This document shows, one piece after another, positions 2,486 through 62,840 of a stretch of 64,000 bases of DNA. How positions within the stretch are numbered: position 1 is the stretch's first letter; every line of letters starts with the position of its first letter. Position numbers and translations under genes: made by a program. The notes beneath the pieces were generated by a model. That model was given only the letters and a program-made list of their open reading frames with translations, ran no database searches and had not been told where the DNA came from. The DNA lies in contig CAKZKT010000102.1 of the NCBI GenBank assembly GCA_937124585.1, forward strand, positions 1 to 64,000, read 5' to 3'. Source of the DNA: an uncultured Anaerolineae bacterium (GTDB lineage: Bacteria > Chloroflexota > Anaerolineae > CG2-30-64-16).

Positions 2486-2524
2486 CGAAGCCGTCCGAAA
2501 CACCCCTGTAAGAAGGTGCCCCCC

Positions 2525-2547
2525 GCTCTCCCCGGGAAGGGGAGAGC
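2525..2547. repeat. palindromic REP-like element / hairpin after the dehydrogenase gene
   Basis: GCTCTCCCC and GGGGAGAGC form a perfect 9-bp stem with a 5-base loop, followed by a G/A-rich stretch (2548-2570). Sequences of this CTCTCCCC...GGGGAGAG type are widespread intergenic repeats in many bacteria. It lies between the dehydrogenase stop (2617) and the methyltransferase promoter, so it could also stop transcription; there is no T-run. Confidence 0.6.
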
Positions 2548-2616
2548 GAGGACGAGGGTGAGAGGGGCTCAATGCGTTGCGAGACAGTCTGCTCCGGGTG
2601 CCCGGCAAGTGTGCGA

Positions 2617-30996: not shown

Positions 30997-32274
30997 ATGG
31001 CAACCTATCCCACGGAGAAGCAGATCAGCGATGCATATGCCCTGGCGCGTGAACGCTATGCCGGGCTCGGCGTGGACACCGATCAGGCGCTATCCACCCT
31101 GGCCGGCGTCGCCATCAGCCTGCATTGTTGGCAGGGCGATGATGTCGGCGGCTTCGAGTCGCCCGGCGGCGAGCTGACGGGCGGCATCGCGGCCACCGGC
31201 AATTACCCCGGCAAAGCGCGCACGGCCGATGAGCTGCGTCGCGACCTCGATCTGGTCTACAGCTTGATTCCAGGCAAGCATCGGCTGAATTTGCACGCCA
31301 TCTACGCCGAGACCGGCGGCCGCAAGGTGGAGCGCGATGCGTTGTTGCCCGAACATTTCGCGGCTTGGGTGGATTGGGCGAAAGCGAATGGCCATGGCCT
31401 GGACTTCAATCCGACCCTTTTCTCGCACCCCCTGGCTGTCAGCGGCATGACCCTGGCCTCCTATGACCCGGGCATCCGCAAGTTCTGGGTGGATCACTGC
31501 ATCGCATGCCGCAAGATCGGCGAGCATTTTGGCCGTGTGCTCGGCTCGCCCTGCGTCACCAACATCTGGATCCCCGATGGCTACAAGGACACACCGGTAG
31601 ATCGCAAAACGCCGCGCGAGCTGCTGAAGAATTCGCTCGACGCGATCCTGGCCGAAAAGATCAACCCGGCGTACAACCTGGATGCCGTGGAGGGCAAGCT
31701 CTTCGGTCTGGGCGCGGAGAGCTACACCGTCGGCTCGGCCGAGTTCTACCTGGGCTACGCGGTGGCGAATCGGGTGCTGCTGTGCCTCGATTCGGGCCAT
31801 TTCCATCCTACCGAGACGATCTCCGACAAGATCTCGGCCGTTTTGCTCTATCTGGACGAGATCCTGCTCCATGTCAGCCGCGGGGTGCGCTGGGACAGCG
31901 ACCATGTGGTGATCCTTTCCGACGACCTGCAGGCGATCATGCAGGAGATCGTGCGGGGCGGCTATTTGCACCGGGTGCACATCGGCCTGGACTATTTCGA
32001 CGCCAGCATCAATCGGGTGGCGGCGTGGACGATCGGCGCGCGCAACGCGCTGCGCGCCCTGCTGATGGCGCTGTTGGAGCCGCTCGAACAGTTGCGCGCG
32101 CTCGAGGTAAGCGGAGACTTCACGGGCCGGCTGGCGCTGCTGGAGGAGGTGAAGGGCCTGCCCTGGGCTGCGGTCTGGGATTACTATTGCCTGCAGCAGG
32201 GGGTTCCGGTCGGCAACCGGTTCATGGATGAGGTGCGCGCCTACGAGAAGACTGAGCTCTCCCGGCGCGGATGA
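30997..32274 (+). CDS. rhaA: L-rhamnose isomerase
   Basis: Converts L-rhamnose to L-rhamnulose in the cytoplasm; 425 residues, close to the E. coli enzyme (419). Whole-length landmarks are seen: [14 protein letters not shown] near residue 45, [26 protein letters not shown] and the metal-site region [20 protein letters not shown]...[12 protein letters not shown] and WDSDHVV. The frame opens upstream at 30889, but [10 protein letters not shown] follows a GGAG site and the leader from the promoter above. No rhamnulokinase or aldolase is adjacent, so the rest of the pathway is elsewhere. It converges on the alpha-2-macroglobulin gene, with a hairpin between them. Confidence 0.95.
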
Positions 32275-32292: not shown

Positions 32293-32348
32293 GCCACGCG
32301 CCAGGCATTCTGCAAGATGCAAGATGCCTGGCACGTGGCGATTTTCAC
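32293..32348. terminator. hairpin / 7-bp-period element between convergent rhaA and A2M genes
   Basis: Arms at 32293-32308 and 32324-32339 pair over 15 of 16 positions around a 15-base loop. From 32300 to 32348 the sequence also reads as seven consecutive heptads, most ending in GC or AC and the last being TTTTCAC. It lies between two converging genes and could stop transcription from both, though there is no classic T-run. A near-copy is at 62794-62840. Confidence 0.6.
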
Positions 32349-32349
32349 G

Positions 32350-35300
32350 CTATTCGCCGATTGTGAACACGCTGCCCGCGCCGCGCCCCCATACCTCCGG
32401 ATGATACATCTGGTAGGCGGTCGGCGGCAGGGTGAGGAACTGGCCGGGCAGGCTGGCCCGGATCTGATAGCGAAATTCGTAGCTGCCCGACGCCAGCGAA
32501 GTGGCAAAGAGGACCGTCTTCTCATCCCGCAGGTCCACGTGCGTCGGCGTCCACCACCAGCTCCAGCGAGACTCTTCGGCTCCGCTTTCCATCTTCAGTT
32601 CCGGGCCGTGCGCGGTGATCGAGGTCGTGCGCAGGCTGGCATCAACCGCCTCTGCGCCGGCCGGCAGCGGATCTTCGATGACCAGGTAGTGAAGCGCGCT
32701 CGGCGCGATGATGCTCAGCCGCACGTCAATCACATCGCCCACGCGCGCTGCGCTGATCGGCGGGCAGGTCTCCTGGCTGGTCGGCGGCAGGCCGCAGTCT
32801 GCCAGACGATATTCGCGGCTGATGATGACGCCGCGATTGCGCGGCGCGATCTGCGCCACCGGCTGATAGGTCTGAAGCCACACGGCGTAGTAGAGCTGGC
32901 CGCGGGCTGATCCCTCGTCGGGCGTCGGGGTCGGACTGCCGAGCTGGCCGGCCGTTGCCGCGCGCTGGATCAGCAGGGCGTTGGTTTGATCGGTCAGCAA
33001 CGCCTTGATCTCGGCGCGCAACGTGGTCGCGTCGCCCACCGTGGCGGGCGTTACCTGGCCCTGGCCAAGCGTTGCATTGTTCAAGAGCACGCGCCATGCG
33101 TAATCGCCTCGCAGCTCGCCGCTGGCGACCATCCAGTCGGTCAGGCCCATGATCGCCCAGGCGGTCTCCTGGGTCGTCTCCCAATGATCGGCCCGCCGCG
33201 CCGACATGAGCCAGCGAACCACGTTCGGCGCCAGGCTGTGCTTCGGATCGTGGCGGGCCAGCACGGCCAGCAGGATGGCGGTCGTGCGCGTGTCCGAGTT
33301 CATATTCCAGTAGTCGGGCCAGCCCTCCTCCCAATGGGCGGTGGTTGCACTGGTGATCGCCTTGCCCGTGATCTCGGCCAGAAGGGCTTGCAGCCGGGAC
33401 GCGCTCGCGCCGTCGCCGAGCAGGCCGAACGTCAAGGCCAGATAGCCCTTCGCGTAGAGGCTCAGCCCCTCGCGTCGCTCGTAGAGCGCGCCCGCCCGAT
33501 TCGGCTCGCCCGCGCCCGCTTCGGCCAGCGCGTAGAGGATGAAGGCCTGCTGATTCAGCTGCGTGGCACTGAGGCCGGCCGGCGCTTTCAGCTGGCCGCG
33601 CAGATAGCGCACGCCGCGGGCCAGCACCGTCTCATCCACGATGAAGCCCGTCTGCCGCGCTTTCGCCAGTCCGAGCACCACGTAGCTGCTGATCGCGGCG
33701 TCGCTGGCATCCTTCGCCCACCAGCCCCAGCCGCCGTCCACGTGTTGGCCGGTATAGAGCCGTTGCAGCCCTACGCCCACCTGCTGCGCCAGCGCCGTCT
33801 CCAGCTCTGGCTGCGACCAGCCCAGCTTCTTGAGCGCGCTGTAGCTGACCACGTTCGGCAGGAAGCGACTGACCGTCTGTTCGGTGCACTCGTAGGGGTA
33901 ATGCTCCAGATAGGCGAGCCCGCCGCGCATCCCGGCCGCCAGGCTGGCCTCCAGCCGCACCTCGACCTGACCGGCCGTGCGGTCGGCCCCGGCGGGCAGG
34001 CGGATCAGCTCCAGGCGGCTCTCGCCCAGCGCCACCTGGCCGCTGGTGCCCGTCACCTCCGGCGTGATGTAGCGGTGCACGGGCAGCACATATTCCACGG
34101 CATCCTGCAGGGGGCCGGCCGTTCCCGCCGCGGACATCGTCACCTTGACCTGGGTCGCATCGGCTGCAACCGTCACCGGCCAGGCGATCTTGACCGTGTC
34201 GCCGGCTTTGATCATCGCTTTGCGTTGTGTCGCTGCGGCCACCTGCAGGCCCTCGGCCTGCAGCGCCACCTCGACGCCGGTCTCGGCCTGGGTGTTGTTG
34301 TGCACGATGGCCGCGATCTCGGCCTGGTCGCCGGCCACGAAGAAGCGCGGCAGCACGGGCCGCACCAGCAAGTCCTTGGTGGCGATGATGTCCAGCCTGG
34401 CCTGGCCGACTTTTGTGTCGGCGGTCACCGCGCGCGCGTCCATCGTCCAGGTGGTCAGGCTGTCGGGCAGGGTCAGCTCGACCTGCGCGCTGCCGTTGTC
34501 ATCGGTGCGGACCGCCGCGTTCCAGTAGGCGGTGTCGGGGAATTCGCGGCGGACGGTGAACGCGATCGCTCCTTCGCCGCCTCCGCCTCCGCCTTTGCCG
34601 CCCTCTGCCAGCTGTGCCAGCAGGCGATCTACGTTCACGACCAGGGTGGCGGCCGTGGTGACGCCCAGCCCGCGCTCGCGATAGAAGCGATTCATCAGCG
34701 AGTCGGCATCCCATTCCGGGCCTTCGGCCAGGGAGAGGACGGCTTTGTCCACCAGCGCCAGCGAGACCTCGGCCGGGACGGGCTTGCCCGCTGCGTCCAG
34801 GGTACGGACTTCCCACACCATCGCCTCGCGCGGGCCGACGCGCAGCGGGCCGCTGCCCGATGCCGGAGTCTGGCCAGAGGATCCGGCCGCCGACTTTGCG
34901 CGCGGGATCAGTTCCACCTGCAGGCGCTTGTCGGCGGTGGAGACCTTCAGCGCGGCCAGGCCCATGCGGAAGGAGGGCGCAGGCGAGGTCTCGTCTATTC
35001 CTTTGACGAGCAGCAACGACGCGAAGACATCGGGCGCGAACTCGGTGCGGATCGGGATTTCCAGAAGCTCGCTGTTGCTGCGGATGTCAATCACCGCGCG
35101 GCTGAGGATGCCCCCGCGTTCGATCGTCAGCAGCGCCTTCACCGGCGTCTGATATGGGCTGGCGACCAGCAGCCGCGCGGTCTCGCCGACCCGATACTCC
35201 TTCTTGTCGGGGATCAACTGGATGCGGTCGTTGTTTTCCTGGCGCCACGCCGTGTATTTCTGGCCGCTGACCCAGGCGTAGGTGGCGCTGCGCACACTGT

Positions 35301-38300
35301 GGCCGGCTCGATCGCGGCCGGTCGCCTCGATCTTGTACTCGCCGGGCTCGGCGGGCGTGAACGCGAAGACCGCGGTGCCGTTGCGGTCGGTGGTCACGGT
35401 CTGCGTGTAGACCGGCGTCTTCTCGGCCCGGCTCGTCCAGTAGAAATTGCCGTTTTCCGCCTGCTCGCGCACGCTGTACCAGCGCACCTGGTAGGCGATG
35501 ATCTCGATCCGGGCCTCGGCTTCGGGCCGGCCCTGGGGATCCACGGCCAGCACGTCGAAGGCAGCCGGCTGGCCGACGACCGTCACATAGCTCTGTGGCC
35601 GCAGGCCGATGTAGTAGGTCGCTTTGTGCACGATGGCGCTCGCCTGCGCTGCAACGCTCTGCCCGCTGACATCCAAGATCGTGAAGTCCACCGTGAAGCG
35701 CTGGCTCTGGCCGAACTTCGTGATGTCGGCCGGCAGGCTGACCGTGAAGCGGCCTTCTGCATCGAGCATCCCTTCTCCCTGGCTCAGCACGCTGCCGAAA
35801 CCCGGGCCGCGACTCGTCTCGTACCAGTCCCAGTCGGTGAAGCTATAGGGACCGCCCGGCCACTCCGCTGCGTTGGGCGGCTCGAAGGCGAAGTCGTTGC
35901 GCAAGAGCACCCAGCGCACCGTCGCCCCTTTCACCGGCTGACCGAAGAAATAGTTGGCCTGGACAGTCGCTTTGATCTGTTCGCCCTGGATGTATTCCGG
36001 CCGGTCAGTCTGCGCGCTGACCTCATATTCCGGCTTGCGGTACTCGGCTACCTGAAAGCTGGCGCTGACGTAGCTGCCCTCCCGCTCCCGTGAAGGCTGC
36101 GGATCGGGAATCTGTACCATGATCTGGTAATAGCCCAACGATGCATCGGTGTCGAGCACCAGTTCGCCGTGTACCGTGCCCATGCCGTCAAGCGCCATGG
36201 GTCGGCTCCAGAGCATCTTGCCCATGCCGTCGTTGACCGTCACGGTGATGGTCTGGCCGGCCGCAGGCAGCGCGTAGAGCGCGTCGTTGTCGCGGCGGAT
36301 GATGGCTTTCCAGTATACGGTCTGGCCGGGACGGTAGATCGGTCGGTCGGTGTAGACATAGCCGGTGTACGGTTCGACCGAGCCGTCGGCGTTGACGCGA
36401 AAATCCCACGGGCTGATGCCAGACGTCCAGGCGGTTGAGGCGACGCCGAAGCCGCCATCGGCGCTGCGGGCCAGTGCCAGCAGCGTCATCCACGGTTGGC
36501 GCGGGGAAGCGAAGGCGACTTCGGCGATCCCGTCGCGGCCCGTAGTCGCGCGCAGATCAATATCCAGCCCATCGCTGAAGCGGACCTCGGCACCGGCGAC
36601 CGGCTGGCCGCTCCGCAGGTCGGTGACCCAGGCCAGCGCGCCGCCGGCCCAGGCTTTCAGCGTCACATTCATCGTCGTGCGGCCGATGAGCTGGCGCTGT
36701 GAGCCCGGCATATCGTTGCGGTCCACGATCGCCGCCGTTTCGCTGTCCACGACCAGGTAATACAGGCCGGCCGGCAGCGGTTCGCCATCACGCGTTGTGA
36801 GGGCGGTGGTGATGACGCCGATCTGATTGCGACCCGCGCGCGTCTCCACCCGCCATTCGCGCACCAGATCGGCCCGCTTCGGCGTGTAGGTGCGCCATTT
36901 CTCCCAGAAATTCTGTCCGGCCAGGGCGATGAATTCGTCGTCTGGGAGTCGCCAGAGGCCGAAGCTGATCTGCGGCACGTTGCGATAGGTCACCGCGGCG
37001 AAGGTCGGTGTGTAGGCGTTGTACGTCCCCACCGCGCCGGTGCTGTAAAGCTCCACGAACGGGTCGGCCTCCCGGGTGGCGAAGCGCAGGATATAATCCT
37101 GGCCCAGCAGATTGCCGTAGGGGTCGGCGATCTTGCCGGACAGGGTGACGGTGTATGCGGTGTCGGGCAGCGTTTCCAGGTTGATGTAGAGCGTATTGTC
37201 CCAGTCGCTGTAATTGGTGTAGACGCGCGTCGGCTTCGGCAGAACGGTCACCGTGCCGCTGACGATGCTGGCCGGGTTGATCGGGCTGGCGAACTGGAAG
37301 CTGATCCCGCCGGCCGGCGCCACGCGGCGGTCGCCGTTGGCCGGCAGCGTGTGCACGATCTTCGGCGGGAAGACGGTGGTGAAGTCCACGCTGGCGGCCG
37401 CGCGCAACACGCCCTGGCCGTTCGCCGGCCGGGCCGATGCTGCGATGGTGGCCCGATATTGTGTCCCCAGTTTGAGGCTGCGCGTCGGCTTGAAGCTCAG
37501 CGCGGTGCTGGCCTGGTTCCAGGTAAAGACCCCCTCCAGCGGCGCCGACTCGCTGCGATCGGTGAGCTCTACCAGGCGGAAGGCAGCCTCGGTCGAGCGG
37601 CGCTCCATCGGCATCGAGAAGGTGACCGTGATCGGGCTGGCGGGCGTCACATTGTCCGTTCCATCGCGATAGGTCGCCCGCGCGAGATCCCAGCGCAGCA
37701 CGGCCGGGTCGGTCGTGCGGAAGGTGAAGGTGTAGGGTTCGACCAGCTGGCCGCCCGTCGTGTCCTCCAGCCCGGCCTTCACGGTGACCGTGTAGTCGGT
37801 GGCCGCGGCCAGGCCGTCGGCCGGCGTGAAGCGGTAGATGCTGGTGGTGAGCCATTCGCCTGCGCCAGCCACCGTCGGTGTGATGACGAGCGGTTGCGCT
37901 GCGCGCTCGCTGCTGCCCACGGCCGCAAGGCCGCTCAATGCGACCACCGGCCGGTTGAACGCCACCACGAGCGCCACGTCCACGGGCACATCTACGGCCT
38001 GGTGGGCCGGCTGCACGCTCGTCACCTGCAGGTAGCCGGCCGTTTTGAACCTGAAGGAGATCGGCTGGGGCAGCGGCAATCCGGCTGCGCTGCGCGCCGA
38101 GGCATCCAGACGCACCCGATATTCGGCCCCGCGCTGCAGTCGCTCGGTGGGCGAGAAGATCAGCTGATTGCCTTTGACCTGCACCTCGCCCGGCACCGCC
38201 GGCTCGATGCTGAACGCTGCGCCTGTGCTGGCAGCATCCATAGGCTGGTCGAAAGTGATCGTCACCGGCGCGGCGAGCACCTGTTCTTCGCCGCGATCGG

Positions 38301-38481
38301 GCGTGATGCCGATCACCACGGGCGGCAGCGGCGCCGGTGTCGGTGTCGCTGTCGCCACGGTCGTTGGTGTTGGCAGGCTGCGCGGCGGCTCGGTCGTCGG
38401 GGTCGGCTGCGGCGCGCGACCGCAGTTCGCCAGGATCAAGATGGCCATAGCCAGGCCGATGAAGAGTCGTATAAGACGCAT
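32350..38481 (-). CDS. bacterial alpha-2-macroglobulin lipoprotein with thioester
   Basis: Giant lipid-anchored protease trap of 2043 residues. The signal peptide ends in lipobox ILANC and is followed by a Pro/Thr-rich tether. Next come several Ig-like (Big_5-type) N-terminal domains (for example TPDRGEEQVLAAPVTITFDQPMD), MG domains, the A2M_N motif TDRPIYRPGQTVYWKA, the A2M core (TAYWNAAVRTDDNG...LTTWTMDARAV) and an alpha-toroid thioester domain. The thioester motif is CTEQ with Cys1532 and Gln1535. MRLIRLFIGLAMAIL at 38481 is the start. It is the last gene of an operon with PBP1C and a lipoprotein, the same partnership as E. coli yfhM-pbpC, implying defence of the envelope or repair of peptidoglycan under protease attack. 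Confidence 0.95.
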   Translation of the reverse strand: MRLIRLFIGLAMAILILANCGRAPQPTPTTEPPRSLPTPTTVATATPTPAPLPPVVIGITPDRGEEQVLAAPVTITFDQPMDAASTGAAFSIEPAVPGEVQVKGNQLIFSPTERLQRGAEYRVRLDASARSAAGLPLPQPISFRFKTAGYLQVTSVQPAHQAVDVPVDVALVVAFNRPVVALSGLAAVGSSERAAQPLVITPTVAGAGEWLTTSIYRFTPADGLAAATDYTVTVKAGLEDTTGGQLVEPYTFTFRTTDPAVLRWDLARATYRDGTDNVTPASPITVTFSMPMERRSTEAAFRLVELTDRSESAPLEGVFTWNQASTALSFKPTRSLKLGTQYRATIAASARPANGQGVLRAAASVDFTTVFPPKIVHTLPANGDRRVAPAGGISFQFASPINPASIVSGTVTVLPKPTRVYTNYSDWDNTLYINLETLPDTAYTVTLSGKIADPYGNLLGQDYILRFATREADPFVELYSTGAVGTYNAYTPTFAAVTYRNVPQISFGLWRLPDDEFIALAGQNFWEKWRTYTPKRADLVREWRVETRAGRNQIGVITTALTTRDGEPLPAGLYYLVVDSETAAIVDRNDMPGSQRQLIGRTTMNVTLKAWAGGALAWVTDLRSGQPVAGAEVRFSDGLDIDLRATTGRDGIAEVAFASPRQPWMTLLALARSADGGFGVASTAWTSGISPWDFRVNADGSVEPYTGYVYTDRPIYRPGQTVYWKAIIRRDNDALYALPAAGQTITVTVNDGMGKMLWSRPMALDGMGTVHGELVLDTDASLGYYQIMVQIPDPQPSREREGSYVSASFQVAEYRKPEYEVSAQTDRPEYIQGEQIKATVQANYFFGQPVKGATVRWVLLRNDFAFEPPNAAEWPGGPYSFTDWDWYETSRGPGFGSVLSQGEGMLDAEGRFTVSLPADITKFGQSQRFTVDFTILDVSGQSVAAQASAIVHKATYYIGLRPQSYVTVVGQPAAFDVLAVDPQGRPEAEARIEIIAYQVRWYSVREQAENGNFYWTSRAEKTPVYTQTVTTDRNGTAVFAFTPAEPGEYKIEATGRDRAGHSVRSATYAWVSGQKYTAWRQENNDRIQLIPDKKEYRVGETARLLVASPYQTPVKALLTIERGGILSRAVIDIRSNSELLEIPIRTEFAPDVFASLLLVKGIDETSPAPSFRMGLAALKVSTADKRLQVELIPRAKSAAGSSGQTPASGSGPLRVGPREAMVWEVRTLDAAGKPVPAEVSLALVDKAVLSLAEGPEWDADSLMNRFYRERGLGVTTAATLVVNVDRLLAQLAEGGKGGGGGGEGAIAFTVRREFPDTAYWNAAVRTDDNGSAQVELTLPDSLTTWTMDARAVTADTKVGQARLDIIATKDLLVRPVLPRFFVAGDQAEIAAIVHNNTQAETGVEVALQAEGLQVAAATQRKAMIKAGDTVKIAWPVTVAADATQVKVTMSAAGTAGPLQDAVEYVLPVHRYITPEVTGTSGQVALGESRLELIRLPAGADRTAGQVEVRLEASLAAGMRGGLAYLEHYPYECTEQTVSRFLPNVVSYSALKKLGWSQPELETALAQQVGVGLQRLYTGQHVDGGWGWWAKDASDAAISSYVVLGLAKARQTGFIVDETVLARGVRYLRGQLKAPAGLSATQLNQQAFILYALAEAGAGEPNRAGALYERREGLSLYAKGYLALTFGLLGDGASASRLQALLAEITGKAITSATTAHWEEGWPDYWNMNSDTRTTAILLAVLARHDPKHSLAPNVVRWLMSARRADHWETTQETAWAIMGLTDWMVASGELRGDYAWRVLLNNATLGQGQVTPATVGDATTLRAEIKALLTDQTNALLIQRAATAGQLGSPTPTPDEGSARGQLYYAVWLQTYQPVAQIAPRNRGVIISREYRLADCGLPPTSQETCPPISAARVGDVIDVRLSIIAPSALHYLVIEDPLPAGAEAVDASLRTTSITAHGPELKMESGAEESRWSWWWTPTHVDLRDEKTVLFATSLASGSYEFRYQIRASLPGQFLTLPPTAYQMYHPEVWGRGAGSVFTIGE

Positions 38482-51989: not shown

Positions 51990-52003
51990 GGGTGGCCTCG
52001 AGC

Positions 52004-52089
52004 GTGAAACGTGAAATGTGAGGCGTCAAGCATCAGGCGTCGAGTGCCAGGCGCCCACTTGCTGATTTGCCGATTGGCTGATTTGCCGA
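52004..52089. repeat. degenerate 7-bp and 16-bp tandem array at the XdhC 3' end
   Basis: From 52004 the plus strand runs in heptads (GTGAAAC, GTGAAAT, GTGAGGC, GTCAAGC, ATCAGGC and on) to about 52059. It continues as two copies of GCTGATTTGCCGA (52061-52073, 52077-52089) with a 16-base period. The array contains the xdhC stop codon and encodes the last part of XdhC. Confidence 0.75.
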
Positions 52090-61223: not shown

Positions 61224-61974
61224 ATGCGTTTCTTTGACTGCAACGTTTTTTTTCGGCCTGCCGATTGTCCGGCCGTTACGTCCCGTACCGACTGCAGAGA
61301 TGCTGCTGGCCGAAATGGATCGCGCGGGCATCGAGCGCAGCCTGGTCTGGCACATCGCCCAGCACGACGCGTCGCCGCAGCTCGGCAACCGGCTGCTGGC
61401 CGATGCGATCCGGCCGCATGACCGGTTGGTCGGCTGCTGGACGGTGTTGCCGAACCACGCGCATGAGTTCCCGCCGCCGGCAGAACTGTTCGACCAGATG
61501 CGCCAGCAGCGCATTGCCGCGCTGCGCATCTTCCCGACCGCGCATCGCTTTCAGGCGAATGCTGTAAGCCTGGGCGATCTGCTGGAGGCGATGGTGGCGC
61601 GTCGCGTGCCGCTTTTCCTTTCCATGCGCCGTGGGGCCAATTGGGCGGTTGCCTATGCCCTGTTGGCCGAGTTCCCGCAACTCGTGTGCGTCATCTGCGA
61701 TCATGGCTGCTGGGGCGAAGATCGTTCGTTTCGGCCGCTGTTGAGCCGCTATCCGAACGTGTATGTGGACACGGCGCAGTATCTGCTCGACGGCGGGATC
61801 GAGGCACTGGTGGCCGATTACGGCCCAGGACGGCTTCTGTTCGGCAGCGGCTTCCCCGAGTCGTACCACGGCGGCATGATGCTGGCATTACGCCATGCCC
61901 GGATCGGCGAGGAGGCGAGGCAGGCCATCGCAGCCGGCAATCTGGAACGCATTCTGGCAGAGGTAATCCTATGA
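61224..61974 (+). pseudogene. amidohydrolase-fold protein lacking metal ligands, frameshifted at an 8-T run
   Basis: The ATG at 61224 follows a strong GGAGGG site and gives MRFFDCNVFF, a typical start for this amidohydrolase-2 subgroup. The next residues (GLPIVRPLRPVPTAEMLLAEMDRAG) are one frame away. Eight T at 61246-61253, where seven would fit, make the break; the result would be about 249 residues. The slip could be real, an assembly error, or bridged by slippage on the T-run. The usual HxH is DCN here, and the late metal Asp (FGTD) is FGSG (LLFGSGFPES), so the protein looks non-catalytic even when read through. It overlaps the next gene by ATGA. Confidence 0.8.
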
Positions 61975-62780
61975 TCGGCATATCTCCCCTGGCGCGCGAG
62001 TTTTGGGAACATGGCCGTTCGGCCTTGTGTCCGATCTACGACATGCACGGCCACATGGGCACGTTTCACTCGATCTACTTTCCGCGAGCCGAAGCAGCGG
62101 ACATGATCCGCACGATGGACGAATGCGGCGTGCGCATGCTGGTCTTTTCGCATCATCACGCACTGTTTGCGCCCGATGTGGGCAATGTGCCCGCAGTGGA
62201 AGCGGTGCGACGCTATCCCGACCGGCTACGGGCCTACTGCGCGTTGAACGCGAACTACCCGGAGCAGCTCGAGGTGGCGCTGGCGGATTTCGACGCATAT
62301 GCCGATGTGTTCGTGGGCTTCAAGTTTCTCCCCGACTATCACAAAGTGGCGCTGACCGATGCCCGCTGTCGGCCGGCCTGGGAGTTCGCCGAGGCGCGGC
62401 GGCTGCTCGTGCTGACACACACCTGGCGCGATAGCCCCTACGATGGCCCGGCCATCGTGCGACAGATCGCGGCGCGCTATCCGAATGTGCCGCTGTTGCT
62501 GGGCCACTCTTGCCATGACGACTGGGATGCGGCCGTGGCCCTGGCCCGCGACTTCCCGAACATTTACCTGGAACTGACCGCGGTCTTCGATGATCGGGGG
62601 CCATTGGAAAAGTTTTGTGCCGAGGTCGGCTCGCACTGCCTGTTGTTCGGCACCGATCTGCCGTGGTTCGATCCGCATCAGGCGATTGGCGCGTTGCTTT
62701 CGGCCGACATCAGCGATGAGGACCGGCATAACATTTGTCATCGCAATGCCGAACGATTGCTGGCGCCGTTTCTGACCTGA
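61971..62780 (+). CDS. amidohydrolase-2 family metal-dependent hydrolase
   Basis: TIM-barrel metal hydrolase or decarboxylase of 269 residues (family of ACMSD, LigI-like lactonases). All ligands are seen: HGH (His26, His28), LTHTW, LLLGHSCHDDW and the final Asp in FGTDLPWFDP. The start at 61971 overlaps the upstream stop by ATGA, so translation is coupled to the ligand-free paralogue. It may be the active half of a complex. Divergent from the glycyl radical operon; substrate unknown. Confidence 0.88.
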   Translation: MIGISPLAREFWEHGRSALCPIYDMHGHMGTFHSIYFPRAEAADMIRTMDECGVRMLVFSHHHALFAPDVGNVPAVEAVRRYPDRLRAYCALNANYPEQLEVALADFDAYADVFVGFKFLPDYHKVALTDARCRPAWEFAEARRLLVLTHTWRDSPYDGPAIVRQIAARYPNVPLLLGHSCHDDWDAAVALARDFPNIYLELTAVFDDRGPLEKFCAEVGSHCLLFGTDLPWFDPHQAIGALLSADISDEDRHNICHRNAERLLAPFLT

Positions 62781-62793
62781 AAACAGCTGTGCT

Positions 62794-62840
62794 CACGCGC
62801 CAGGCACTCTGCAGGGTGCCCGGCGCGTGGCGGCTTTCAC
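62794..62840. terminator. hairpin / 7-bp-period element, second copy
   Basis: Arms 62794-62806 and 62817-62829 pair at 12 of 13 positions with a 10-base loop, 13 bases after the hydrolase stop. From 62799 the sequence reads in six heptads ending in CTTTCAC, aligning with the copy at 32300 except for one missing heptad. Possible terminator or attenuator before the next gene. Confidence 0.6.

What the first reader, a model, noticed from the sequence alone, without database searches (positions are those of the whole stretch)
32300..32348. Dispersed hairpin family built from a 7-bp period, with exact one-heptad indel between copies
The copies at 32300-32348 (seven heptads) and 62799-62840 (six heptads) align heptad by heptad: GCCAGGC, then A(T/C)TCTGC, on to GTGGCG(A/G) and (T/C)TTTCAC, with one AAGATGC unit lost in the second. 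Related words occur at 52004-52059 and, more weakly, at 2466-2485 and 2595-2612. Four of the five sites touch or lie within about 30 bases of a stop codon; the one at 2466-2485 sits just upstream of the methyltransferase promoter. The elements fold as hairpins yet lack T-runs. They are neither simple satellites nor ordinary terminators.
Basis: seen in the sequence. Interest (0 to 1): 0.7.

Follow-up and report, generated by a model that had tools for sequence, protein, structure and literature searches.

The report
RAYT-associated palindromic repeats, not heptad satellites
The two hairpins are copies of a short mobile-type palindromic repeat (at least 164 copies in this genome, mostly just after genes) of the kind spread by a domesticated "REP" transposase; the proposed seven-base building unit is largely an illusion.

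Summary
The hairpins at 32295-32337 and 62794-62829 are real and belong to a large family. The genome has at least 164 copies of a 36-bp near-perfect palindrome (CACGTGCCAGGCA-CTCTGCAAGA-TGCCTGGCACGTG) in 82 clusters. Almost all are intergenic, biased towards stop codons, and often tandem. The heptad reading fails: core length is 36 bp in 157 of 164 copies, the 7-bp insertion occurs in one copy only, and array spacings ignore multiples of 7. The site at 52004 is a separate degenerate 7-bp repeat; those at 2466 and 2595 are at chance level.

In two relatives the same palindrome lies on both sides of a RAYT (REP-associated tyrosine transposase), in the same place after mutS. A RAYT of the same clade in a third genome, from another family, has GTGCCTGGCAC palindromes next to it. 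Across the clade, 10 of 15 genes have long palindromes nearby, against 4 of 38 other RAYTs (p = 1e-4). Their arms are themselves palindromic, and the classic GTAG tag is absent.

Best explanation: GTAG-less, double-palindromic REP/REPIN-type elements mobilised in trans by this RAYT clade. No cognate RAYT was found in the window's own assembly, where mutS is also missing. Mobility is inferred, not shown.

The parts
32295..32337 (.). Palindromic core, copy 1: arms 32295-32307 and 32325-32337, 17-nt centre with a private 7-bp duplication (43 bp in place of 36)
   Evidence: sequence; fold; arms; the only 43-bp core among 164
32338..32348 (.). Flank GCGATTTTCAC of copy 1, matching one side of the outer inverted repeat (TGAAAATCGCC ... 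GCGACTTTCA) of a subset of copies; the other side is not recognisable here
62794..62829 (.). Palindromic core, copy 2: arms 62794-62806 and 62817-62829, 10-nt centre (36 bp)
   Evidence: sequence; fold; arms
62777..62839 (+). Copy 2 with its outer inverted repeat (CTGAAAACAGCTGTGCT ... GCGGCTTTCA), full-length model match, 76.5 bits
   Evidence: G000:C102:62777-62839
30997..32274 (+). Gene ending 20 bp before copy 1
   Evidence: codon-model gene call
32350..38448 (-). Gene whose stop lies 12 bp after copy 1 (convergent pair)
   Evidence: codon-model gene call
61971..62780 (+). Gene ending 13 bp before copy 2
   Evidence: codon-model gene call
51993..52051 (.). Degenerate period-7 stretch; NOT a member of the hairpin family

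Best explanation
The element is a short non-autonomous repeat of the REP/REPIN kind. Its core is an inverted pair of a self-palindromic word (ACGTGCCAGGCAC), so one strand can fold either as one long hairpin (15-16 bp across relatives; 13 bp plus a 10-nt centre in this genome) or as two small ones (GTGC-CAG-GCAC). A RAYT (Y1 single-strand transposase) of one particular clade, encoded in relatives beside mutS with copies of the palindrome around it, most likely cuts and rejoins such hairpins when they become single-stranded and so copies them to new intergenic places. Local tandem duplication then makes arrays. Insertions survive mainly between genes, close to stop codons and away from divergent promoters, because they do least harm there; in mRNA the hairpin may also mark or protect 3' ends. 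Shown: the family, its structure, its placement, and the proximity to this RAYT clade in relatives. Inferred: mobilisation by that RAYT, the two-hairpin recognition, and any effect on RNA. In the window's own genome the cognate RAYT is lost or lies in an assembly gap.
For: At least 164 cores in 82 clusters, 157 of them exactly 36 bp. Helix conserved across genomes: 9 of 16 pairs with changes on both sides, 0 of 500 shuffles. Of 62 bounded clusters 60 are intergenic; in same-strand gaps the stop is nearer in 32, the start in 13, p = 0.007; divergent gaps depleted, p = 0.0015. RAYT with these palindromes on both sides in G004:C213 and G009:C144, same place after mutS, 89% identical proteins. RAYT of the clade in G067 with three GTGCCTGGCAC palindromes on one side. 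Clade-specific link: 10 of 15 against 4 of 38 RAYT loci, p = 1e-4. Arms self-palindromic across the clade's repeats, 5.4 against 3.3 +/- 0.2 pairs. RAYT identity: NF047646 at 74.5-75 bits, Pfam Y1_Tnp 24.2 bits over its cut-off of 23.
Against: The window's own assembly has no RAYT of this clade, and G005, rich in copies and with an intact mutS locus, has none there. NF047646 scores are just under that model's cut-off of 80. No GTAG foot. No target-site duplication, empty site or excision was shown. RAYT statistics are not corrected for relatedness, and the palindrome is common in G004 and G009, so chance proximity is not fully excluded.
Confidence: 0.78

Rival explanations
1. The hairpins are gene-end signals kept by selection (terminators or mRNA 3'-end stabilisers) rather than mobile elements.
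For: Bias towards stop codons (medians 28 against 62.5 bp in same-strand gaps, p = 0.0014); stable folds; some copies have TTTT a few bases after the stem (GCGATTTTC).
Against: Core sequence, not only structure, is conserved among copies; arrays of up to eight copies; only dozens of clusters for a genome of thousands of genes; abundance jumps from 0-2 to many between genera of one family. A by-product role in RNA is not excluded.
Confidence: 0.1
2. A MITE-like element of an ordinary IS, with the outer TGAAAATCGCC repeat as its terminal inverted repeat.
For: A subset has an outer imperfect inverted repeat; CTGAAAATCGCC occurs 17 times against 0 for the reversed control word, some of them without a canonical core.
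Against: Most copies, and copies in relatives, have the core without this frame. No IS with these ends was identified, although none was searched for systematically.
Confidence: 0.07
3. A satellite or hairpin family evolved by gain and loss of 7-bp units.
For: One copy has a 7-bp insertion; lag-7 self-match of the core is slightly raised.
Against: 157 of 164 cores are exactly 36 bp; other length changes are -1, +1, +5 and +7; spacings are not multiples of 7; lag 7 is not significant after allowing for choice of lag.
Confidence: 0.02
4. A palindromic binding site for a DNA-binding protein (nucleoid or regulator operator).
For: Conserved palindrome between genes.
Against: Depleted in divergent (promoter) gaps; stem kept by double-sided changes across genomes; close to RAYTs in relatives.
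Confidence: 0.03

Closest known systems
REPINs / REP doublets with RAYTs (Bertels and Rainey 2011, PMC3116915)
   Same: Inverted pair of palindromic words forming one hairpin, intergenic, many copies, clusters, a RAYT in relatives with copies around it.
   Different: No GTAG-type foot; the two halves are much closer together (3-10 nt) than the 71- or 110-bp doublets described there.
TIR repeats and TIRtrons with TIRYT transposases (Di Nocera 2013, PMC3733652)
   Same: RAYT-like genes bounded by long inverted repeats without GTAG, some self-complementary or double-palindromic, forming dispersed families in dimers or clusters.
   Different: Sequence unlike the described GGGGWSAS type; host group and transposase clade differ. 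Protein-level membership in TIRYTs was not tested.
Atypical REPs of TnpA-REP subclasses 2.6 and 3 (PMC6006769)
   Same: Repeats near Y1 transposase genes without a GT[AG]G foot.
   Different: Described there as having weaker secondary structure; here stems are long. Subclass of this RAYT not assigned.
TAACTGA heptamer direct repeats (Beggiatoaceae, PMC4679880), for the 52004 stretch only
   Same: Intergenic direct repeats of 7-bp units.
   Different: There one fixed heptamer; here degenerate heptads of a different sequence in each array. Known from the abstract only.

Membership tests
REP (GTAG superfamily) | Conserved unpaired GTAG-type tetranucleotide at the 5' foot | tested here: not met
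   GTAG 0, GTGG 2, GGAG 0 of 328 foot positions
REP (CGTC superfamily) | Unpaired CGTC at one end | tested here: not met
   CGTC 4 of 328
REP/REPIN in the wide sense | Short palindromes, many copies, mostly intergenic | tested here: met
   164 cores, 82 clusters; 60 of 62 bounded clusters intergenic
REP/REPIN in the wide sense | Inverted doublet of a palindromic word folding as one hairpin | tested here: met
   folds, covariation, self-palindromic arms
REPtron / TIRtron | RAYT gene with copies of the repeat next to it | tested here: met
   in relatives G004 and G009, both sides, and G067, one side; not found in the window's own assembly
REPtron / TIRtron | Repeat cut and mobilised by the RAYT | not testable with these tools
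   needs biochemistry or population sequencing
RAYT (NF047646 / Y1_Tnp) | Score over the curated cut-off | tested here: inconclusive
   NF047646 74.5 and 75 bits, cut-off 80; Pfam Y1_Tnp 24.2 bits, cut-off 23; weak match to E. coli TnpA-REP 4er8, E 0.001
Intrinsic terminator | G+C-rich stem directly followed by a T-run | tested here: inconclusive
   stem yes; TTTT only in the frame of a subset, a few bases after the stem; terminator scan not run
Known Rfam family | Match at gathering score | tested here: not met
   0 matches in the window

The most novel reading that the evidence does not exclude
A distinct RAYT clade, found in 72 of 396 sampled genomes of this class at E <= 1e-30, uses GTAG-less double palindromes. 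Each half is a small hairpin (GTGNN-N-N'N'CAC type) and the whole an inverted pair, so the halves alone would specify the target, with recognition rules unlike those of the known E. coli and Stenotrophomonas systems.
Probability: 0.4. Interest if true: 0.55.

Novelty: new member of a known kind. Interest (0 to 1): 0.42.

Why it matters
It turns an odd 'heptad hairpin' into a named, testable kind of element and adds a well-sampled RAYT clade from a little-studied group, in which the repeats differ in sequence from gene to gene while keeping one format. That gives natural variants for asking how domesticated Y1 transposases recognise repeats without the GTAG guide. It also shows why such genomes assemble badly: 16 of 82 clusters lie within 130 bp of a contig end.

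Tried and rejected
Heptad satellite: rejected by core-length and spacing distributions. Known Rfam RNA: none. The own-genome RAYT at C102:78420-78947 as cognate: it has TTGGATTGCGGGGACACGTCCCCGC repeats around it instead. Sequence words in the literature (GTGCCAGGCAC / GTGCCTGGCAC): 15 papers, judged by their titles to be chance matches. Exact-pattern scan of 84,980 genomes: one hit, in a Chloroflexota MAG; the own genome or one very near may be left out of that scan, and relatives use other loops that the pattern does not cover. GTAG/CGTC tags: absent or rare. A first core count (144 in 78 clusters) used a best-match regex that skips copies in arrays; it was replaced by a plain Hamming scan. 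The gene-context figures still rest on the 78 clusters of that first count.

Full report
Observation. Both hairpins exist at the places given and fold well. The windows at 2466 and 2595 fold no better than shuffles. The one at 52004 is a degenerate period-7 stretch with a weak fold.

Family. A BLAST search of the window's own genome (4.83 Mb, 164 contigs) gave 85 and 127 matches with the two copies. A covariance model (R1) built from 22 copies gave 175 matches at E <= 1, counting both strands. In the 351 kb fetched around these matches, a Hamming scan finds 164 non-overlapping cores in 82 clusters. Of these, 157 are exactly 36 bp, the others 35 (three), 37 (two), 41 and 43. The consensus core is CACGTGCCAGGCA-CTCTGCAAGA-TGCCTGGCACGTG. 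A subset carries an outer imperfect inverted repeat, CTGAAAATCGCCGTGCT ... GCGACTTTCA, which also occurs without a canonical core. Arrays of up to eight copies have spacings of mostly 39-64 bp (four of 86 or 99) with no preference for multiples of seven. Sixteen clusters lie within 130 bp of a contig end, so the true copy number is probably higher.

The heptad claim. The 43-bp core at 32295 holds a private 7-bp duplication; no other core has that length. Lag-7 identity of the consensus is modest (p = 0.013 at lag 7, 0.064 for the best lag from 5 to 11, against shuffled palindromes). Period-7 stretches do exist in this genome (7 in 351 kb, including 52004), but they have other sequences.

Position. 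Genes were called with a codon-usage model trained on the window. The context analysis used the 78 clusters of a first core count; the later recount of 82 clusters was not re-annotated. Of the 62 clusters not at the edge of a stretch, 60 are intergenic. In 46 same-strand gaps the stop is nearer in 32 and the start in 13 (p = 0.007; medians 28 and 62.5 bp). Divergent gaps hold 5 clusters and convergent gaps 9, although divergent gaps contain three times the bases (p = 0.0015).

Relatives. Among nine other genomes of the same family, six hold 17-89 model matches (candidates capped at 89) and three hold 0-2; outside the family most genomes have none or a few, with one at 40. An alignment of 30 cores, most of them from relatives' genomes, shows double-sided changes at 9 of 16 pairs (0 of 500 shuffles), so the helix itself is conserved. 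The alignment was put together by hand from matched copies, which favours the structure somewhat.

Link to RAYTs. In G004:C213 and G009:C144, palindromes of this family lie on both sides of a RAYT gene that directly follows mutS. The proteins are 89% identical. In G009 the downstream copies are imperfect or interrupted by Ns, which is why the automated test with stem >= 14 marks only G004 as two-sided. A RAYT 63% identical in G067, from another taxonomic family, has three GTGCCTGGCAC palindromes on one side. For the RAYTs closest to these (60 bits or more to the G009 protein), 10 of 15 loci have palindromes with stems of at least 14 bp within 350 bp, against 4 of 38 other RAYT loci (p = 1e-4). 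In a second, partly overlapping sample of the clade, 14 of 28 loci have stems of at least 13 bp within 500 bp; the window, as a background, has none in 64 kb. The sequences differ between clade members (GTGACAGTCAC, GTGCGACGCAC, GTGCCCGTCAC, AGCTTCCGGGAAGCT and so on) but the format is shared: an inverted pair of self-palindromic arms (5.4 internal pairs per arm against 3.3 +/- 0.2 in shuffles). 'Clade' here means similarity score; no tree was built.

Own genome. The assembly has one RAYT, at C102:78420-78947, outside the window. It is 31% identical to the G009 protein and has another repeat around it. No close mutS1 is found in the own assembly (best match 34% identical), while eight of the nine relatives have one at 86% or more (not G008, 70% complete); in G006 and G007 the contig ends at or inside the mutS 3' end. 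An assembly gap at the RAYT locus is therefore plausible but not shown. G005 is a counter-example: its mutS locus is intact and has no RAYT.

Comparison. REPs of the GTAG superfamily carry a GTAG foot (PMC3733652, PMC8266576); this was tested and not met (0 of 328). REPINs are inverted REP doublets forming hairpins (PMC3116915); the anatomy agrees, though the halves here are closer together. The nearest description is that of TIRtrons and TIR repeats, including double-palindromic ones (PMC3733652), and of atypical REPs of TnpA-REP subclasses 2.6 and 3 (PMC6006769). I therefore file it as a new, GTAG-less member of RAYT-associated repeats and do not call it a classical REP.

Limits. The statistics ignore relatedness. 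Gene calls are home-made. The genomes are mostly draft assemblies. The RAYT scores lie near curated cut-offs. Thresholds for stem length and distance were chosen after looking at first results. That the host is a Chloroflexota bacterium is my inference from sequence character and the one named hit; no taxonomic test was run. Mobilisation and any effect on RNA are inference.

Noticed in passing
G000:C102:78420-78947 (L119 1288-1815), just outside the window: A RAYT (NF047646, 87 bits, over the cut-off) with a different hairpin family around it, TTGGATTGCGGGGACACGTCCCCGCTTTGGATT.
   Followed up: partly
window 51993-52051; also C68:26998, C39:22029, C77:13363, C162:7905, C162:8906, C50:10095: Degenerate period-7 stretches, a different heptad in each; one in 40 Markov-resampled 64-kb windows had any. 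Similar ones in relatives.
   Followed up: partly
G000 cores with both outer arms recognisable: The 10-nt centre of the palindrome occurs in both orientations relative to the outer arms (13 against 10), as if the centre flips.
   Followed up: no
G000:C6:4636-4800 (L009): A CATTGCGAGG-type hairpin lies beside a copy of the palindrome, between similar flanking words (GGTGAAA ... TTTTCAGGA).
   Followed up: no
G000:C104:61923-62014 (L273): A copy with an insertion of about 29 bp in its centre that is itself partly self-complementary.
   Followed up: no
G000 whole assembly: No close mutS1 homologue found although the assembly is rated 99.8% complete; in relatives the cognate RAYT sits directly after mutS.
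   Followed up: partly
window 2524-2548: Palindrome CGCTCTCCCCGGGAAGGGGAGAGCG between the two weak sites near 2.5 kb; similar CTCTCCCC/GGGGAGAG words appear in loci from relatives (e.g. L178).
   Followed up: no
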